Below, in pieces: positions 28,587 through 61,315 of a stretch of DNA of 64,000 nucleotides. How positions within the stretch are numbered: position 1 is the stretch's first letter; every line of letters starts with the position of its first letter. The DNA lies in contig NZ_JBDJAW010000002.1 of assembly GCF_039649665.1 (NCBI RefSeq), positions 124,001 to 188,000 on the forward strand, written 5' to 3'. This DNA is from Microbispora sp. ZYX-F-249 (GTDB taxonomy: Bacteria; Actinomycetota; Actinomycetes; Streptosporangiales; Streptosporangiaceae). The notes beneath the pieces were generated by a model that worked only from the letters and a program-made list of their open reading frames with translations, was not told where the DNA came from and ran no database searches. Made by a program: the position numbers and the translations under genes.

Positions 28587-28733
28587 CCGTCGCCCTCCGC
28601 TGATCCATCCGGGCGCTCGGCCAGGCGTCGTTTTCGTATGCCCTCACACTCGACGGCGAGGTGAGAGGCCGCCTGCGCCGGCGTCCCGCCGAACACCGAT
28701 CTCAGACCGAGCCTCGGAGAAGGACGTGTGCCC

Positions 28734-30416
28734 ATGAGCACCCCGGCCCGCCCGGCGAACCGCCATCACAAGCGCCCGCGTGGCGAAGGTCAGTGGGCTC
28801 TCGGTTACCGTGAGCCGCTGAACAAGAACGAGGAGAACAAGAAGGCCGACGACGGGCTGAACGTCCGTCAGCGGATCATCGACATCTACTCCAAGCGCGG
28901 CTTCGACTCCATCGACCCCGCCGACCTGCGCGGCCGCTTCCGCTGGTACGGCCTGTACACCCAGCGCAAGCCGGGCATCGACGGCGGCAAGACGGCCGTC
29001 CTGGAGCCCGAGGAGCTCGACGACCGCTACTTCATGATCCGCATCCGGACCGACGGCGGCCAGCTCAGCCTGGAGCAGCTCCGGGTGATCGCCGACGTCT
29101 CCAACGACTACGCCAGGGGCACCGCCGACGTCACCGACCGGCAGAACATCCAGCTCCACTGGGTGGAGATCGAGTCGGTGCCGGACATGTGGACGCGGCT
29201 GGAGGCCGTGGGCCTGTCCACCACCGAGGCGTGCGGCGACACCCCGCGCGGCATGCTCGGCTGCCCCCTCGCGGGCATCGACGCCGACGAGGTGATCGAC
29301 GGCCGGCCCCAGCTCCAGGAGATCCGCGAGCGGTACATCGGCGACCCGGCGTTCTCCAATCTGCCGCGCAAGTTCAAGACCGCGATCAGCGGCTGCGCCG
29401 CGCACTGCACGGTTCACGAGATCAACGACATCGCGTTCGTCGGCGTGCTGAACGAGCAGGGCGAGGCCGGCTTCGACCTGTGGGTGGGCGGCGGCCTGTC
29501 GACCAACCCGATGTTCGCCAAGCGGCTCGGCGTGTTCGTCCGGCCCGAGCAGGCCCACGAGGTGTGGGCCGGGGTCACCGGCATCTTCCGCGACTACGGC
29601 TACCGGCGGCTGCGCGGCAGGGCGCGGCTGAAGTTCCTGATGAACGACTGGGGCCCGGAGAAGTTCCGCGAGGTGCTGCAGACCGAGTACCTCAAGTACG
29701 AGCTGCCCGACGGCCCGGCCCCCGCGGCGCCGCGCGGAGACCGGCGCGACCACGTCGGCGTCCACCTCCAGCGTGACGGCAACTACTACGTGGGCTTCGC
29801 GCCCCGGGTGGGCCGGCTCAGCGGCGACCTGCTGCACCGCATCGCCGACATCGCCGAGCGCCACGGGTCCGGCCGGGTGGCGACGACGGTCGAGCAGAAG
29901 ATGGTCATCCTCGACGTCGCGCCCGACCGGGTGGACTCGATCGTGGCCGAGCTGGAGGCCGCGGACCTGCGGGTCAACCCCTCCACGTTCCGCCGTCAGA
30001 CGATGGCCTGCACCGGCATCGAGTACTGCAAGCTCGCGATCGTGGAGACCAAGAACGCCGCGTCCGAGCTGATCGACGAGCTCGAGCGGCGACTGCCCGA
30101 CTTCGCCGCGCCGCTGACCATCAACATCAACGGCTGCCCGAACTCCTGCGCCCGCATCCAGACGGCCGACATCGGCCTCAAGGGCCAGCTCGTGGTCAAC
30201 GACAGGGGCGAGCAGGTCGAGGGCTACCAGGTGCACCTGGGCGGCTCGTTCGGCCTGAACCCGAGCTTCGGCAGGAAGGTCCGCGGCCTCAAGACCACGG
30301 CCGAGGACCTGCCCGACTACGTCGAGCGGGTCGTGCGCAACTACGAGAAGCAGAAGGACGAGGGCGAGTCCTTCGCCGAATGGGTCAAGCGCGCCGACGA
30401 GGCCGACCTCAAGTGA
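28734..30416 (+). CDS. sir: Assimilatory sulfite reductase (ferredoxin-type, siroheme/[4Fe-4S])
   Basis: A 560-residue nitrite/sulfite reductase. Cluster and siroheme Cys are at about 426, 432, 468 and 472 (ACTGIEYC and NGCPNSC). The two half-domains repeat as usual. ACGDTPRGMLGCP near residues 162-174 corresponds to the region with the Tyr-Cys link in mycobacterial NirA. It reduces sulfite to sulfide with electrons from ferredoxin. Its neighbours, APS reductase and a siroheme chelatase, make sulfite rather than nitrite the substrate. The start ATG follows AAGGA by nine bases. The stop overlaps the next start. Confidence 0.92.
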   Translation: MSTPARPANRHHKRPRGEGQWALGYREPLNKNEENKKADDGLNVRQRIIDIYSKRGFDSIDPADLRGRFRWYGLYTQRKPGIDGGKTAVLEPEELDDRYFMIRIRTDGGQLSLEQLRVIADVSNDYARGTADVTDRQNIQLHWVEIESVPDMWTRLEAVGLSTTEACGDTPRGMLGCPLAGIDADEVIDGRPQLQEIRERYIGDPAFSNLPRKFKTAISGCAAHCTVHEINDIAFVGVLNEQGEAGFDLWVGGGLSTNPMFAKRLGVFVRPEQAHEVWAGVTGIFRDYGYRRLRGRARLKFLMNDWGPEKFREVLQTEYLKYELPDGPAPAAPRGDRRDHVGVHLQRDGNYYVGFAPRVGRLSGDLLHRIADIAERHGSGRVATTVEQKMVILDVAPDRVDSIVAELEAADLRVNPSTFRRQTMACTGIEYCKLAIVETKNAASELIDELERRLPDFAAPLTININGCPNSCARIQTADIGLKGQLVVNDRGEQVEGYQVHLGGSFGLNPSFGRKVRGLKTTAEDLPDYVERVVRNYEKQKDEGESFAEWVKRADEADLK

Positions 30417-30568
30417 CGACCGAGAGGGCCGCGCCGTTCTACTGCCCGTACTGCGGCGAGGAGGACCTGGAGCCCTACGTGACCGAGGAGGAGAGCCACG
30501 GATGGTACTGCAGGTCCTGCGCCCGCGCCTTCCGGGTGAAATTCCTCGGCCTCGGCGTGCGTTCGTGA
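30413..30568 (+). CDS. Zinc-ribbon small protein between sir and cysH
   Basis: A 51-residue protein starting at GTG 30413, whose TGA-overlapping start couples it to sir. CPYCGEEDLEP and WYCRSCARAF give a CxxC...CxxC zinc ribbon. A small protein at the same place is conserved in actinomycete sulfur operons and has no known role. It could help assemble the reductase Fe-S/siroheme enzymes or act as a small regulator (both inference). Confidence 0.82.
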   Translation: MTTERAAPFYCPYCGEEDLEPYVTEEESHGWYCRSCARAFRVKFLGLGVRS

Positions 30569-30628
30569 TCCCAGAAGGCTTTCGTCCAATCATCCGATGA
30601 ATCAGTGAACGACGTGTGAGGAGTAACG

Positions 30629-31357
30629 ATGTCGGTGGCGGAGATAGAGGCAGGACTGGAGCGGCAGCGGGCCACGCTGGACCTCCAGGGCATCGTGGAG
30701 TCCGCGGCGCGCTTCCTCGAGGACGCGCCCGCCCGGGAGATCATCCGTTGGGCCGCGGCCACCTTCGGCGACCGCCTCTGTCTCACCTCGTCGATGAGCG
30801 ACGCCCTGCTGATCGACCTGGTCAGCAGGGTCAAGCCCGGCGTCGACGTGCTGTTCATCGACACCGGCTACCACTTCGCCGAGACCATCGGCACCCGGGA
30901 CGCGGTCGAGGCGGTCTACAAGGTCAACGTGATCAACGTGAAGCCGTCCAGGACCGTCGAGGAGCAGGACCGCGACCTCGGGCCGCGCCTGTACGGGCGC
31001 AACCCCGACCTGTGCTGCTACCTGCGCAAGGTCGAGCCGCTCAACCGGGCGCTGGAGCCGTACCTCGCGTGGGTGTCGGGCATCCGCCGCGACGAGTCGC
31101 CCACCCGCGCGAACACCAAGGTCGTGGAGTGGGACGCCAAGCGGCAGATGGTCAAGGTCAACCCCATCGCCCGGTGGACCCAGCAGGACGTCGACAACTA
31201 CATCGCCGACAACGGGGTTCTGATCAACCCGCTGCACTACGACGACTACCCCTCGATCGGCTGCGCCCCCTGCACCCGCCGCGTGGCGCCGGGCGAGGAC
31301 CCGCGCAGCGGCCGCTGGGCCGGCCTCGGCAAGATCGAATGCGGCATCCACCTGTGA
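30629..31357 (+). CDS. cysH: Assimilatory adenylyl-sulfate (APS) reductase
   Basis: A 242-residue reductase. The paired Cys at 129-130 (DLCCYLRK) and CAPC at 212-215 hold a [4Fe-4S] cluster, which marks an APS-type rather than PAPS-type enzyme. The catalytic Cys is in the tail, KIECGIHL (238). It reduces APS to sulfite with thioredoxin. The stop overlaps the GTG of the chelatase gene. Genes for sulfate activation (cysD, cysN, cysC), which often follow, are not in the window. Confidence 0.94.
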   Translation: MSVAEIEAGLERQRATLDLQGIVESAARFLEDAPAREIIRWAAATFGDRLCLTSSMSDALLIDLVSRVKPGVDVLFIDTGYHFAETIGTRDAVEAVYKVNVINVKPSRTVEEQDRDLGPRLYGRNPDLCCYLRKVEPLNRALEPYLAWVSGIRRDESPTRANTKVVEWDAKRQMVKVNPIARWTQQDVDNYIADNGVLINPLHYDDYPSIGCAPCTRRVAPGEDPRSGRWAGLGKIECGIHL

Positions 31358-32097
31358 CCGTCCCGCACGAAGGCGCGCCGCTGGTCGCGGTGGCGCACGG
31401 GTCCCGCGACCCGCGCGCCGCCGCGACCGTGGAGGCGCTGCTCGACGGCGTACGGCGGGCGCGGCCCGGCCTGGACGTCCGCGCCGCCTATCTCGACCAC
31501 GCCCCGCCCTCGCTGCCGCAGGCGCTGTCCGGGCTGGACGAGGCCGTCGTGCTCCCCCTGCTGCTCACCGCCGCCTACCACAGCCGCGTGGACATCCCGG
31601 CGGCGCTGCGGGAGGCGGCCGGACGCACCCCGCGGCTGCGGGCCGTCTGCGGACCCACGCTCGGCCCGCATCCGCTGCTCGTCCGGGCCCTCGAACGCCG
31701 TCTCACCGAGGCCGGCGTCGAGATCGGCGACCCGGAGACGGCCGTGGTGCTCGTCTCGGCCGGCTCCAGCGACCGCCGGGCGAACGCGACGATCGCCGCG
31801 GTCGCCCGCGAGTGGGCGCTCACCCGCCCCTGGTGGTCGGTCACCGCCGCCTACGCCTCGGCCGCCGCGCCCACGCCCGGGGACGAGGTCGTACGGCTGT
31901 CGCGCGCGGGCGCCCCGAGGGTCGTGGTGGCGCCCTACCTGCTGGCCCCCGGCCACTTCGCCGACAAGGTGGAGCGCGACGCCCTGGAGGCCGGCGCACA
32001 CGCCGTGGCCGGCGTCCTCGGCCCCGCCCCCGAACTGGTCGCGCTCCTGCTCGAACGGCACGCCCAGGCCGTCCGCGCCGCTTCCGAAGCCGCCTGA
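31354..32097 (+). CDS. Sirohydrochlorin chelatase (CbiX/SirB type)
   Basis: A 247-residue protein with two copies of the CbiX fold. VAVAHGSRDPRA near residues 11-22 and TAAYHSRVD near 70 supply the metal-site His of the first half. The second half (YLLAPGHFADKV, near 193) keeps a His as well. It inserts iron (or cobalt) into sirohydrochlorin, here most likely to supply siroheme for the sulfite reductase. GTG start overlaps the cysH stop. It is the last gene of the operon and converges on the hydrolase gene. Confidence 0.88.
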   Translation: MTVPHEGAPLVAVAHGSRDPRAAATVEALLDGVRRARPGLDVRAAYLDHAPPSLPQALSGLDEAVVLPLLLTAAYHSRVDIPAALREAAGRTPRLRAVCGPTLGPHPLLVRALERRLTEAGVEIGDPETAVVLVSAGSSDRRANATIAAVAREWALTRPWWSVTAAYASAAAPTPGDEVVRLSRAGAPRVVVAPYLLAPGHFADKVERDALEAGAHAVAGVLGPAPELVALLLERHAQAVRAASEAA

Positions 32098-32128: not shown

Positions 32129-33511
32129 TCACGGGCTGGTGCACGTGATGGAGGGCATCGACGGCGTACCGGTGCCGAGGAAGCCGAACGTGCTCGAGCC
32201 GGACGCGGGGATCGAGCCGTTGTACGAGGCGTTCGTCACTCTGACGGCGGAGCCGTTGACGCTCAGCGTGCCGTTCCACACCTGGTTGATCGTCTGGCCG
32301 CCGCTCAGCGTCCAGCCGACGGTCCACCCGTTGATCGCCGAAGTGCCCGCCGTCACCGTCACCTCGCCCTGGAAGCCCCCGGACCAGGAGTTCACCGTAC
32401 GGTAGCTCGCCGTGCAGGCGCGCGACGCCGACGGGCTGGCGGACGGCGACGGCGACGGCGAAATCGGCGGGCTTGCGGACGGCGACGTGGACGGGCTGGC
32501 GGGCGGGCTGGCGGACGGCGACGTGGACGGGCTGGCCGACGGTGACGACCCGCCCGGCGGCACGTACGGGCACTTGCTCCGGTACATCGAGACGTTGGCG
32601 GAGTCCGCCAGTTGCGGGCACAGGAACTGGGTGTACCGGGTGTCGTCGTCGAGGAAAATCTTCAACCAGGGGATCAGCACCCGCATCTCGGTGGTGTTCG
32701 CGCGGGTCGCGAACAGGTGGTCCACACCGGTGATCTCCACCCACGCGCTCGGCGTCGAAGCCGGGATGGTGGTGTACAGCCCGTTGAGGTAGGACCGTGT
32801 GACGGTCGTGTCCCTCTCGCCCGAGATGAACATCGTCGGCACGCGGTCGTTGTACAGGCTGTAGTCCCCGACCGGCGAGCCGGGCGCGAGTCCGACCGCG
32901 GCCTTCAGCGTGGGCCGCCGGAGCAGCGCGGACAGGACGCCTGCCCCGCCCGCGGAATGGCCGACCACCGACAACCGGTTGGGGTCGACCCGGTCGCGCA
33001 CCGCGCTGCGCTGGGTGAGGTAGTCCAGCGCGGCGAGCAGCTGGGTTCCCCGGGCGTCCGCGCTGTCGGTGCGGCTGTTGGTCTCGATCCCGATCACTAC
33101 GAAGCCGAAGGACGCGAGCCAGGGGCCCATCCACGCTTCCTCGTTGGCGAACAGGGCGGAGTAGCCCGGCACGATCGCGACGCCGCCGAAGGTCCCCTGA
33201 CCGGTGTCCGTCGGGTAGTAGATCACACCGCTGCCGAAGCCGTTCCCGGGCGGCACGCTGATCTGCGCGGTGGCGAACGTCCCCCGGGTGGCCGACACGC
33301 TGGCCAGGGTCGGGTTGGGACCCCGCTGATAGGGATTGTCGGCGGCCGATGCCGCGTGAGTCGCGATGGTCATCGAGAGCAGCCCGAGAACGGCCACCGT
33401 CGCGGCCGTCACGCGGTGCATCAAGCGGTGCATCAAGCGGCGTCCCCGGCCGGGCGGCGGCCCGAGTGCGTCGGCGGCACCATACAGAGATTCGCTCACA
33501 TGTCTTCGCAC
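32129..33511 (-). CDS. Secreted cutinase/polyester-hydrolase-fold enzyme with C-terminal CBM2
   Basis: A 460-residue secreted alpha/beta hydrolase. GTG at 33511 has GAGGAGG nine bases upstream. A long basic N-region and a hydrophobic core end at about residue 56 (THAASA). NPYQRGPNPT and DTRYTQFLC are hallmarks of the Thermobifida cutinase/LCC family of PET-active enzymes. The predicted triad is Ser186 (GHSAGG), Asp234 and His265. Cys298 and Cys314 should form the conserved C-terminal disulfide. A Ser/Pro linker (about 317-362) joins a cellulose-binding CBM2 with its surface Trp. Departures from PET-degrading relatives are Ala for Met in GHSMGG and Gly211 where they have the subsite Trp. Polyester activity is therefore uncertain. 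Plant cutin or suberin esters are likely alternatives. Confidence 0.9.
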   Translation of the reverse strand: MRRHVSESLYGAADALGPPPGRGRRLMHRLMHRVTAATVAVLGLLSMTIATHAASAADNPYQRGPNPTLASVSATRGTFATAQISVPPGNGFGSGVIYYPTDTGQGTFGGVAIVPGYSALFANEEAWMGPWLASFGFVVIGIETNSRTDSADARGTQLLAALDYLTQRSAVRDRVDPNRLSVVGHSAGGAGVLSALLRRPTLKAAVGLAPGSPVGDYSLYNDRVPTMFISGERDTTVTRSYLNGLYTTIPASTPSAWVEITGVDHLFATRANTTEMRVLIPWLKIFLDDDTRYTQFLCPQLADSANVSMYRSKCPYVPPGGSSPSASPSTSPSASPPASPSTSPSASPPISPSPSPSASPSASRACTASYRTVNSWSGGFQGEVTVTAGTSAINGWTVGWTLSGGQTINQVWNGTLSVNGSAVRVTNASYNGSIPASGSSTFGFLGTGTPSMPSITCTSP

Positions 33512-35286: not shown

Positions 35287-36849
35287 GTGACCCGCAGCAG
35301 GTTGCTCGAGGCGATAGCGGGAGGGGACGTCGCGCGGGTGGCGGCGATGCTGCACCCGGACACCGCCGTGAACCCCGCTCAGGGAACGACGCCGCTCTAC
35401 CGGGCGGCGGTCGCCGGTCACCACGACATCGTCAGGCTGCTCCTGGAGTACGGCGCCGACCCCGACCGGCCGAGCGGAGGGCACGAGGAGGGCCTTCCGC
35501 TCTGCGCGGCGGCGTGCTGGGACCACGCCGAGACCGTGCAGGCGCTGCTCGACGGCGGCGCCGACCCCGACGCGGCGGAGGAGGGCGGCTGGACGGCCCT
35601 GCTGTGGGCCGCGGCCAACGGCAACCTCGAGTCGGCCGACATCCTGCTCGACGCGGGGGCCGACCCCGGCCGGGCCGACGACGACGGCGACACCCCGCTG
35701 ACGCTGGCCGCGATCTTCGGGGCGTACGGGATCGTCTGGTCCCTCCTCGAACACGGCGCCGATCCGTCCGCGCCCGGCTGGGACGGCGCGACCCCGCTGG
35801 AGATCTCCTCACGGCTCGCGGCGGCGGATCTCGAAGCCATGCTGCGCGAGGAGGTCTCCGCGAGGGTGGAGGGCGAGCACACCGTGCTGGTGGCGCACGG
35901 CTCCGCGCCGGACGGCACCCGGCGGGTCACGGTCGAGGCGCGGGGCGCCGACGGCGGCTACTCGATCACCCGCCAGCGCGGCCACGCCGCCGTCGCGACG
36001 GTCCTGGAGTCGGCGCTCGGCCTGCGGCCGTCCGCGGACGTGCTGCTCAGGCGGGTGCTGCCGTACCGCGACCTGGACGAGGACGACGAGACGTGGTGGG
36101 CGGCCGTCCACGCGCTGCAGTCCCGCCACGACGAGGAGACGTTCCTCGCGCTGACCCGGCTGTGCGAGAGCGACGACCCGGTGGAGCGGGAGTTCGGCGT
36201 CGACGTGCTCGCGGAGTTCGGCCAGGAGACACGGCCCGGCCGGGAGAGGGTGGTCGGTCAGGAGACGGGAGTCGGCCAGGAGACGCGGCCCGGCCGGGAA
36301 ACGGTGATCGGCCGGGACGCGGGGCGCGCTCCCTACCGGGACCGCACTCTGGCGATCCTCCGCGACATGGCCCGGCACGAGAGCGAGCCGGCGGTCGTCG
36401 AGGCGCTGCTGCACGCGTTCGGCCACCACGCCGACGAGCGGGCGCTCCCCGAGGTGCTGGACATCGTCAACAGCCCGGGCCGGAAGCCGACCGTCCACGA
36501 CCCCGTCGCGCTCGCCGCGGTCCTGCCGCCGGACGACGAGGACGGGCTGGCCACGCTGATCCGGCTGAGCGAGTGCCCCGACGACGAGGTGCGCGACTGG
36601 GCGACGATGGGGATCGCGGGCCTGGCCGCCGACAGCGCCCGTATCAGGGAGGCCCTGACCACGCGGCTGGCGGACCGCGATCTGACGACGGTGGCCGAGG
36701 CCGCGCGGGGCCTGGCCGGGCGCGGGGACCGGCGCGCGCTCGACGGGATCCACCGGGTGCTGTGCGAGGCGGGGGCCGACCAGGACTACGCCCGCGATCT
36801 CGCCCTGGAGGCGGCCCAGGAGCTCGGTCTGGAGATCTCGGGCGCCTGA
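35287..36849 (+). CDS. Ankyrin-repeat protein with HEAT-like C-terminal half
   Basis: A 520-residue protein. Four to five ankyrin repeats (residues about 1-185) carry TPLYRAAVAGHHDIVRLLL- and TALLWAAANG-type units with GADP turns. The second half has helical HEAT-like repeats (ERALPEVLDIV, DDEVRDWATMG, RRALDGIHRVL). Between them is an Arg/Glu/Gly-rich stretch in which GQETRPGRE occurs twice, from a short in-frame DNA repeat near 36220-36320. There is no signal peptide or membrane helix. It is probably a protein-interaction scaffold whose partner is unknown. The start GTG at 35287 has little ribosome-binding sequence. Confidence 0.86.
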   Translation: MTRSRLLEAIAGGDVARVAAMLHPDTAVNPAQGTTPLYRAAVAGHHDIVRLLLEYGADPDRPSGGHEEGLPLCAAACWDHAETVQALLDGGADPDAAEEGGWTALLWAAANGNLESADILLDAGADPGRADDDGDTPLTLAAIFGAYGIVWSLLEHGADPSAPGWDGATPLEISSRLAAADLEAMLREEVSARVEGEHTVLVAHGSAPDGTRRVTVEARGADGGYSITRQRGHAAVATVLESALGLRPSADVLLRRVLPYRDLDEDDETWWAAVHALQSRHDEETFLALTRLCESDDPVEREFGVDVLAEFGQETRPGRERVVGQETGVGQETRPGRETVIGRDAGRAPYRDRTLAILRDMARHESEPAVVEALLHAFGHHADERALPEVLDIVNSPGRKPTVHDPVALAAVLPPDDEDGLATLIRLSECPDDEVRDWATMGIAGLAADSARIREALTTRLADRDLTTVAEAARGLAGRGDRRALDGIHRVLCEAGADQDYARDLALEAAQELGLEISGA

Positions 36850-60811: not shown

Positions 60812-61315
60812 TCAGAGCCTCTCGAGAACGTCGGGGGGAACGGACCGTCCGGCCGCACGGCGCTCGGCGGCGAAGTCGGCGAGCATGCGCCGCAGTTCGT
60901 CGTCGAAGCGCCGGTCGAGGCCCTCGACCGACGCGAGCGGGACGGACATGAAGACGCACTTGAGCACGCCCTGGCGGAAGGCGTGGTCGTCCAGCCAGGC
61001 CGAGCCGTACGGGCCGAGCGCGGCGGCGACCAGCCGGGTGTCGTTGGTGCGCAGGGCGTCGTGGACGAGCGGGAGAGCGGCCGGACCGAGGTCGAGCTGC
61101 GGAAGCGACTCCAGGATCTCCAGCCGCTCCCCCGCGTCGCCCTGCCAGTAGAGCTTCGTGATGGCGGCCACCGGGTCCGGCAGGGCCTTTGTGAGCGCTC
61201 TCAACAGCTCGGCGCGGGCGCCGGGGCCGCCCTCACGCGCGGCCCGGGGGAACAGCGCGTGGACGGTCTCCGGGTCGCGCTCAACGTCGGCTACGGCCTG
61301 CGCCAGCCAGGTCAT
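60812..61315 (-). CDS. eboA: EboA-domain protein
   Basis: A 167-residue all-helical protein. LYWQGDAGERLEILESLPQL (near residues 55-74) and TNDTRLVAAALGPYGSAWLDDHAFRQGVLKCVF (spanning about 90-122) match the EboA domain of unknown function. No catalytic motif is visible. The N-terminus overlaps the end of the TIM-barrel gene by 35 bases. As the cluster's defining small protein it may hold a complex together (inference). Confidence 0.84.
   Translation of the reverse strand: MTWLAQAVADVERDPETVHALFPRAAREGGPGARAELLRALTKALPDPVAAITKLYWQGDAGERLEILESLPQLDLGPAALPLVHDALRTNDTRLVAAALGPYGSAWLDDHAFRQGVLKCVFMSVPLASVEGLDRRFDDELRRMLADFAAERRAAGRSVPPDVLERL

What the first reader, a model, noticed from the sequence alone, without database searches (positions are those of the whole stretch)
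32129..33511. PET-hydrolase-like cutinase fused to a cellulose-binding CBM2
The catalytic domain is close to Thermobifida cutinase/LCC-type enzymes but has GHSAGG in place of GHSMGG, Gly at the substrate-clamping Trp position, and a CBM2 behind a Ser/Pro linker. The combination suggests action on plant cutin or suberin held on cellulose, with an open active site.
Basis: partly seen in the sequence, partly recalled or inferred. Interest (0 to 1): 0.75.

Follow-up and report, generated by a model that had tools for sequence, protein, structure and literature searches.

The report
Cellulose-tethered PETase-family esterase
A soil bacterium, probably a Microbispora, encodes what looks like a secreted enzyme related to plastic-degrading PET hydrolases, with a changed active site and a cellulose-binding tail, which probably cuts ester bonds in plant cell walls rather than plastic.

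Summary
On the minus strand, 32129-33511 encodes a 460-aa protein: signal peptide, PF12740 (PETase) domain, Ser/Pro linker, C-terminal CBM2. The catalytic triad is intact; Met166 (LCC numbering) is Ala and the clamp Trp190 is Gly. That branch holds three solved structures (61-66% identity), two named PET hydrolase. Among sampled branch members, 35 of 39 carry CBM2 or a ricin-type (CBM13-like) lectin; one further is fused to a GH10 xylanase. None of 35 sampled Trp-clamp relatives shows CBM2 or ricin (two are cut off at their C-terminus). The Ala166/Gly190 form has further coupled changes, usually including two extra loop residues, and recurs in Streptosporangiaceae, Micromonosporaceae, Pseudonocardiaceae and others. 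It probably acts on ester-linked plant polymer beside cellulose or xylan, with weak PET activity. Natural CBM13-fused PET hydrolases are already published, so this is a new variant of a known kind. Substrate and cleft shape are untested.

The parts
32129..33511 (-). Whole coding sequence, 460 aa; GTG start with AGGAGG upstream
   Evidence: the VRRxVSE(S/T) beginning recurs in L009, L012, L013 and L101 but not in L010, L011, L014, L015, so the start is likely, not settled
33344..33511 (-). Long signal peptide, residues 1-56, predicted cleavage ASA|ADNPYQ
   Evidence: my reading; no signal-peptide program was run
32561..33343 (-). Catalytic alpha/beta-hydrolase domain (PF12740)
   Evidence: model matches 9o9w at Z 44.2, rmsd 0.8, 257 residues
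32954..32956 (-). Nucleophile Ser186 (LCC S165)
32951..32953 (-). Ala187 in place of LCC Met166 (oxyanion-hole and subsite I position)
32942..32944 (-). Ala190 in place of LCC Gly169
32879..32881 (-). Gly211 in place of the clamp LCC Trp190; start of the longer loop
33161..33163 (-). Tyr117, the other side of the clamp (LCC Tyr95), retained
32810..32812 (-). Catalytic Asp234 (LCC D210)
32717..32719 (-). Catalytic His265 (LCC H242)
32417..32560 (-). Ser/Pro-rich linker, residues 318-365
   Evidence: most of it has pLDDT under 50 in the model
32132..32416 (-). CBM2 with aromatics Trp376, Trp412, Tyr430 and cysteines 366 and 457

Best explanation
This is a secreted serine esterase of the PETase family (PF12740). 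A CBM2 holds it on crystalline cellulose, and a flexible Ser/Pro linker lets the catalytic domain sweep nearby ester-linked plant polymer, most likely suberin, cutin or wall-bound fatty and phenolic esters, alongside the many other CBM2-bearing proteins the host encodes. Shown: domain order, intact triad, loss of the Met/Trp half of subsite I, a branch separate from Thermobifida/LCC, and recurrent pairing of that branch with carbohydrate-directed modules. Inferred: secretion, cellulose binding, plant polyester as substrate, and weak rather than strong PET hydrolysis.
For: Domains. Triad and substitutions. Separate branch, 42 rows against 11 with support 100/100. In one search, 35 of 39 non-Trp proteins have CBM2 or a ricin-type lectin; of the other four, two end at a contig end (L030, L032), one is a GH10 fusion (L043) and one is bare (L033). 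None of 35 Trp-clamp proteins shows either domain (Trp read), two of them cut off at the edge of the fetched stretch. In family f7, 28 of the 30 proteins read carry CBM2, ricin-type or GH10 domains, GH10 confirmed by Pfam in five. The CBM2 aromatics line up with those of 1exg. The same genome gives 52 further places beyond this gene and its paralogue, nearly all over the linker and CBM2; of four hosts read, one is a GH43 and one a GH5. Disrupting subsite I lowers activity in known enzymes: PHL7 F63A to 16%, LCC Y95, W190 and V212 mutants below 48%, IsPETase M161A to 52% on BHET (passages of PMC10076380).
Against: No substrate test exists. The neighbouring genes look like sulfur assimilation and other unrelated functions (named by eye). 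No CebR-like site lies near the gene. CBMs are also fused to cutinases to raise PET binding (passages of PMC6536475), so the module does not prove a plant substrate. Two of the three solved branch members are named PET hydrolase.
Confidence: 0.55

Rival explanations
1. It is a hemicellulose or lignin-carbohydrate esterase (acetyl, feruloyl, glucuronoyl or fatty ester on xylan) rather than a polyester hydrolase; the pocket has lost the polyester clamp to admit a polysaccharide-bound ester.
For: Related domains of the same branch are fused to GH10 xylanases in at least seven proteins (L040, L043; L120, L122, L123, L124, L126). The Met/Trp side of the clamp is lost.
Against: All seven GH10 fusions carry the Phe/Tyr-type site, none the Ala/Gly type. 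The weak Pfam match of L120 to acetyl xylan esterase AXE1 is in my view only general alpha/beta-hydrolase similarity. The nearest solved relatives are named PET hydrolase or lipase.
Confidence: 0.25
2. It is an ordinary polyester/PET hydrolase with a binding tail; the substitutions change rate but not substrate class.
For: 60% identity and Z 44.2 to 9o9w, which is named PET hydrolase; 66% identity to 9xv7, named C3 cluster PET hydrolase. Type III PETases work without the canonical clamp (passages of PMC12442448 and PMC13396203).
Against: 306 bits against a cut-off of 520 for the BHET hydrolase equivalog. Clamp mutations lower PET activity in known enzymes. Type III enzymes differ at the other side of the clamp and keep Tyr at the Trp site.
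Confidence: 0.17
3. It is a general secreted lipase/esterase for soluble or emulsified lipids, the CBM2 only keeping it near the food source.
For: Streptomyces exfoliatus lipase 1jfr shares the fold (Z 43.1). 9xv5, a branch member, is named lipase.
Against: Binding modules are kept across most sampled members of the branch, which argues for a solid substrate.
Confidence: 0.08

Closest known systems
PDB 9xv7 (C3 cluster PET hydrolase) and 9xv5 (lipase)
   Same: Same branch in the trees; 66% and 63% identity; non-Trp clamp
   Different: They keep Met166 and have Phe or Tyr at 190; the loop is two residues shorter; the solved chains of 266-267 residues hold only the catalytic domain
PDB 9o9w, alpha/beta-hydrolase of Actinoplanes sp. 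DH11
   Same: Best structural match, Z 44.2, rmsd 0.8 over 257 residues
   Different: Tyr clamp, Met166 (alignment)
CBM13-bearing PET hydrolases of Norton-Baker et al. 2025 (PMC12455559; author name recalled)
   Same: Natural PET-hydrolase domains with a carbohydrate-binding module on one branch; the authors also propose cutin and suberin (passages; section 16 part 1)
   Different: CBM13 rather than CBM2 in the passages seen; whether any has the Ala166/Gly190 site could not be checked, since supplements were not available
LCC, Thermobifida cutinases and other type I PETases
   Same: Fold, catalytic triad, Tyr95, a C-terminal cysteine pair
   Different: 48% and 44% identity; LCC T96, M166, G169, W190, A213, P214, H218, F243 and N246 are all changed; no CBM2 or ricin domain seen in 35 sampled Trp-type relatives, two of them cut off at the C-terminus
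Engineered cutinase-CBM fusions
   Same: Same design idea (passages of PMC6536475; that the CenA module named there is a CBM2 is recalled)
   Different: Those are man-made; here the fusion is natural and recurs across species

Membership tests
PF12740 PETase family | Profile match over the curated cut-off across the whole domain | tested here: met
   270.1 bits against 28, profile positions 2-263 of 263
PF12740 PETase family | Ser-Asp-His triad in the GxSxG context | tested here: met
Type I PET hydrolase (LCC-like) | Tyr/Phe-Met-Trp in subsite I | tested here: not met
   Tyr kept, Met is Ala, Trp is Gly; definition from passages of PMC11219463
Type I PET hydrolase (LCC-like) | His164 and Phe243 in subsite II | tested here: not met
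   His164 kept, Phe243 is Leu; PMC11219463 notes that PHL7 also has Leu there
Type II PET hydrolase (IsPETase-like) | Second disulfide near the active site | tested here: not met
   Only Cys298 and Cys314 lie in the catalytic domain; definition for type IIb, for type II
Type II PET hydrolase (IsPETase-like) | Extended loop | not tested
   loop length at that site was not measured
Type III PETase | Gln after the nucleophile and Thr at the Tyr87 site | tested here: not met
   Ala and Tyr instead; definition from PMC13396203 passages
NCBIfam NF051441 BHET hydrolase | Score over the equivalog cut-off | tested here: not met
   306 bits, cut-off 520
CBM2 (PF00553) | Profile match over cut-off | tested here: met
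   81.4 bits against 24
CBM2a subfamily (cellulose type) | Three surface aromatics and Gly, not Arg, three residues after the first Trp (rule recalled, from no call) | tested here: met
   Trp376, Trp412, Tyr430 align with the 1exg aromatics; motif W-S-G-G
CBM2a subfamily (cellulose type) | Binding to crystalline cellulose | not testable with these tools
   needs a pull-down assay
C3 cluster of PET hydrolases (name from PDB 9xv7) | Sequence-cluster assignment of the original authors | tested here: inconclusive
   Same branch as 9xv7; I did not see a paper that defines the cluster
Cutinase or suberinase | Release of fatty acids from cutin or suberin | not testable with these tools
   needs assay

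The most novel reading that the evidence does not exclude
The Phe/Tyr/Gly-clamp branch is a plant-cell-wall ester-hydrolase lineage in its own right, built into cellulase and xylanase systems by fusion to CBM2, CBM13-like lectins or GH10. The Ala166/Ala169/Gly190 plus long-loop site would be a second pocket architecture that arose more than once, or moved as a cassette, for a wall-bound ester that is not an aliphatic polyester; PET activity in the branch would then be a side effect.
Probability: 0.3. Interest if true: 0.65.

Novelty: new variant of a known kind. Interest (0 to 1): 0.45.

Why it matters
PET hydrolases are heavily engineered, yet their native substrates are poorly known (my general knowledge). 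A branch in which carbohydrate-directed modules, including a fused xylanase, go with loss of the Trp clamp gives a direct way to ask what these enzymes do in nature. It also offers ready-made natural CBM2 fusions and a pocket that has discarded residues thought important for aromatic polyester.

Tried and rejected
Cellulose-response regulation: a CebR-type box (recalled consensus) was searched in the window; the single two-mismatch site is at 61190, far away and at chance level. Gene context: of 17 loci tested with flanks of about 5 kb, only L009 kept the window's neighbours, so the neighbours say little about function. Single origin of the Ala166/Gly190 site: with the motif columns left out the best trees split it, p-AU 0.023 for 25 against 28 rows but 0.063 for 33 against 52 rows in a quicker tree. 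Half-domain trees also split it, with few well-supported branches, while the middle segment, which contains the motif, joins it at 94. I leave open two origins, exchange of a segment, or one origin with reversal. Pocket shape: the model (mean pLDDT 83.1; 72 in the block of ten residues that begins the Gly190 loop) supports the fold, but no coordinates were available. Paper searches for natural CBM2 or GH10 fusions (4 listed; 20 of 45 listed; none; 3; 8 of 26 listed) showed none that I recognised as such from the listings; this is weak evidence of absence, and most subscription journals are missing from that library. I searched for no paper on 9xv7 by its cluster name.

Sampling limits. L009-L054 came from peptide patterns of the window protein, one inside the CBM2, which favours CBM2-bearing relatives; L045 (partial) and L046-L054 (CBM2 only) were left out of the counts. 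The Trp-type rows, except the own paralogue, came from the best PF12740 hits in the window's family, which favours canonical enzymes; they were screened for CBM2 and ricin only, not for other domains, apart from four; two (one copy each in L057 and L074) are cut off at the C-terminal edge. The Trp-type rows were not screened. Of the 39 non-Trp proteins, 37 came or the own genome and 2. In family f7 only the 29 best-scoring loci were read (30 proteins). One search used 53 of the 86 rows. In one search three rows labelled MG-G are a reading error of that script; one search reads them as Tyr or Phe. L101 has Ala166 and Gly190 but keeps Gly169, and L097 and L104, fetched with the presumed Ala/Gly loci, turned out to be Tyr and Phe types. 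In one search the loop pattern failed for four of 17 rows, the window protein among them; its loop was counted by eye.

Full report
Observation. The frame 32129-33511 on the minus strand encodes a 460-residue protein. Pfam finds PETase PF12740 at 56-315 (E 2.5e-80) and CBM_2 PF00553 at 366-454 (E 6.7e-23). Between them lies a Ser/Pro-rich linker, and the N-terminus looks like a signal peptide ending ASA|ADNPYQ (my reading; no program run). The GTG start has AGGAGG upstream; its VRRxVSE(S/T) beginning recurs in L009, L012, L013 and L101 but not in L010, L011, L014 and L015. The window lies in an 8.78 Mb genome whose nearest named relative at this gene is Microbispora sp. H13382 (92% best segment), so the host is probably a Microbispora.

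Active site. Aligned to LCC (sequence checked against 4eb0), the triad Ser165, Asp210, His242 and the clamp residue Tyr95 are kept, while Thr96 is Ser, Met166 Ala, Gly169 Ala, Trp190 Gly, His191 Ser, Ala213 Val, Pro214 Thr, His218 Tyr, Phe243 Leu and Asn246 Thr. In one search, 24 of 24 proteins with Ala166 also have Ser96, Ala169 and Gly190; the 13 with Phe or Tyr at 190 and the 35 with Trp have Thr96, Met166 and Gly169. A later sample gave one exception, L101, with Gly169. From the clamp position to the next Val-Pro the loop is 13 residues in this protein (counted) and in L022 and L027, 12 in L018, 11 in the Phe/Tyr rows and most Trp rows measured, 10 in LCC.

Phylogeny. In an 86-row tree the non-Trp proteins form one branch with support 100. 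With the motif columns removed, the 53-row careful tree keeps it at 100/100, apart from 11 Trp-type rows that include LCC, a Thermobifida-type protein (L080) and the genome's own second PETase-family protein. PDB entries 9xv7, 9xv5 and 9o9w fall inside the branch. Identities: 66% to 9xv7, 63% to 9xv5, 61% to 9o9w, 50% to the paralogue, 48% to LCC, 44% to L080, 41% to IsPETase. Whether the Ala/Gly site arose once is open (p-AU 0.023, 0.063).

Modules. Of 39 non-Trp proteins, 24 have CBM2, 11 a ricin-type lectin domain and 4 neither: L030 and L032 stop at contig ends, L043 is a GH10 fusion, L033 is bare. None of 35 Trp-type proteins shows CBM2 or ricin; two of these are cut off at the C-terminus. 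In family f7, probably Micromonosporaceae, 50 of 200 genomes carry a match at E 1e-90; 30 proteins from the 29 best loci were read: 9 CBM2, 14 ricin-type, 5 GH10 and 2 neither, one of the two at a contig end. Pfam confirms GH10 plus PETase in L040 and L043 and in L120, L122, L123, L124 and L126. The counts overlap and are biased by how loci were found (see Tried and rejected). In a phylum-wide sample 8 of 396 genomes matched at E 1e-70; only two of them, the own genome and G353, gave members of this branch, the other six being Trp-type in the tree. The branch is thus concentrated in a few families.

CBM2. The nearest solved modules are 6f7e and 1exg (that 1exg is the C. fimi module is recalled). 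Trp376, Trp412 and Tyr430 line up with the aromatics of 1exg. Gly follows the first Trp at +3, which by a recalled rule marks the cellulose type rather than the xylan type. The own genome gives 54 places, 52 besides this gene and its paralogue, nearly all over the linker and CBM2 (150 of 174 candidates scored). Of four hosts read, one is GH43 with CBM6, one a GH5 cellulase, one a CotH-type protein and one has only a weak sortilin-type match.

Structure. The model of the mature protein has mean pLDDT 83.1; most of the linker is under 50 and the block that begins the Gly190 loop is 72. Foldseek and VIA-align rank 9o9w first, Z 44.2, rmsd 0.8 over 257 residues. This fixes the fold, not the cleft.

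Function. Known enzymes lose activity when subsite I is changed (PHL7 F63A to 16%; LCC Y95, W190 and V212 mutants below 48%; IsPETase M161A 52% on BHET; passages of PMC10076380), yet type III PETases work with a different subsite (passages of PMC12442448 and PMC13396203). Weak PET activity is thus likely, but none cannot be assumed. The recurrent pairing with cellulose-, lectin- and xylan-directed modules points to an ester in plant cell walls. A 2025 study reached a similar view for CBM13-bearing PET hydrolases (PMC12455559: passages, section 16 part 1). Bacterial cutin and suberin hydrolysis is reported for Sub1 of Streptomyces scabies, which that paper likens to fungal cutinases (passages of PMC7104285).

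Verdict. The finding is real and a new variant of a known kind. Added here are the branch placement, the coupled Ser96/Ala166/Ala169/Gly190 site, and the link between non-Trp clamps and carbohydrate-directed modules including GH10. The open cleft and the substrate remain to be tested.

Noticed in passing
L120, L122, L123, L124, L126 (family f7); also L040 and L043: Natural fusions of a GH10 xylanase with a PETase-family domain. The five f7 proteins end in a further 116-120 residues after the PETase domain in which Pfam reports nothing at E 1e-5.
   Followed up: partly
L002 (own genome, contig C6): The same genome holds a second, canonical PETase-family gene with GHSMGGGG and Trp at the clamp and no CBM2 or ricin domain.
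   Followed up: partly
L097 1-1434: A same-genus genome (G097) also carries a Tyr-clamp PETase-family protein with ricin-like repeats (my reading), on a long branch of the tree.
   Followed up: partly
L037 and L038: Kutzneria buriramensis, source of the published Kubu-P, carries both a Phe-clamp and an Ala/Gly-type member, each with a ricin-type domain. Whether either is Kubu-P was not determined.
   Followed up: no
window 28728-32097: Sulfur-assimilation genes (sulfite reductase-like, PAPS reductase-like, CbiX-like; named by eye) run towards the esterase gene; the two genes end about 30 bases apart.
   Followed up: no
window 35287-36849: Ankyrin-repeat-like protein (by eye) with an internal run of GQETRPGRE-like repeats.
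   Followed up: no
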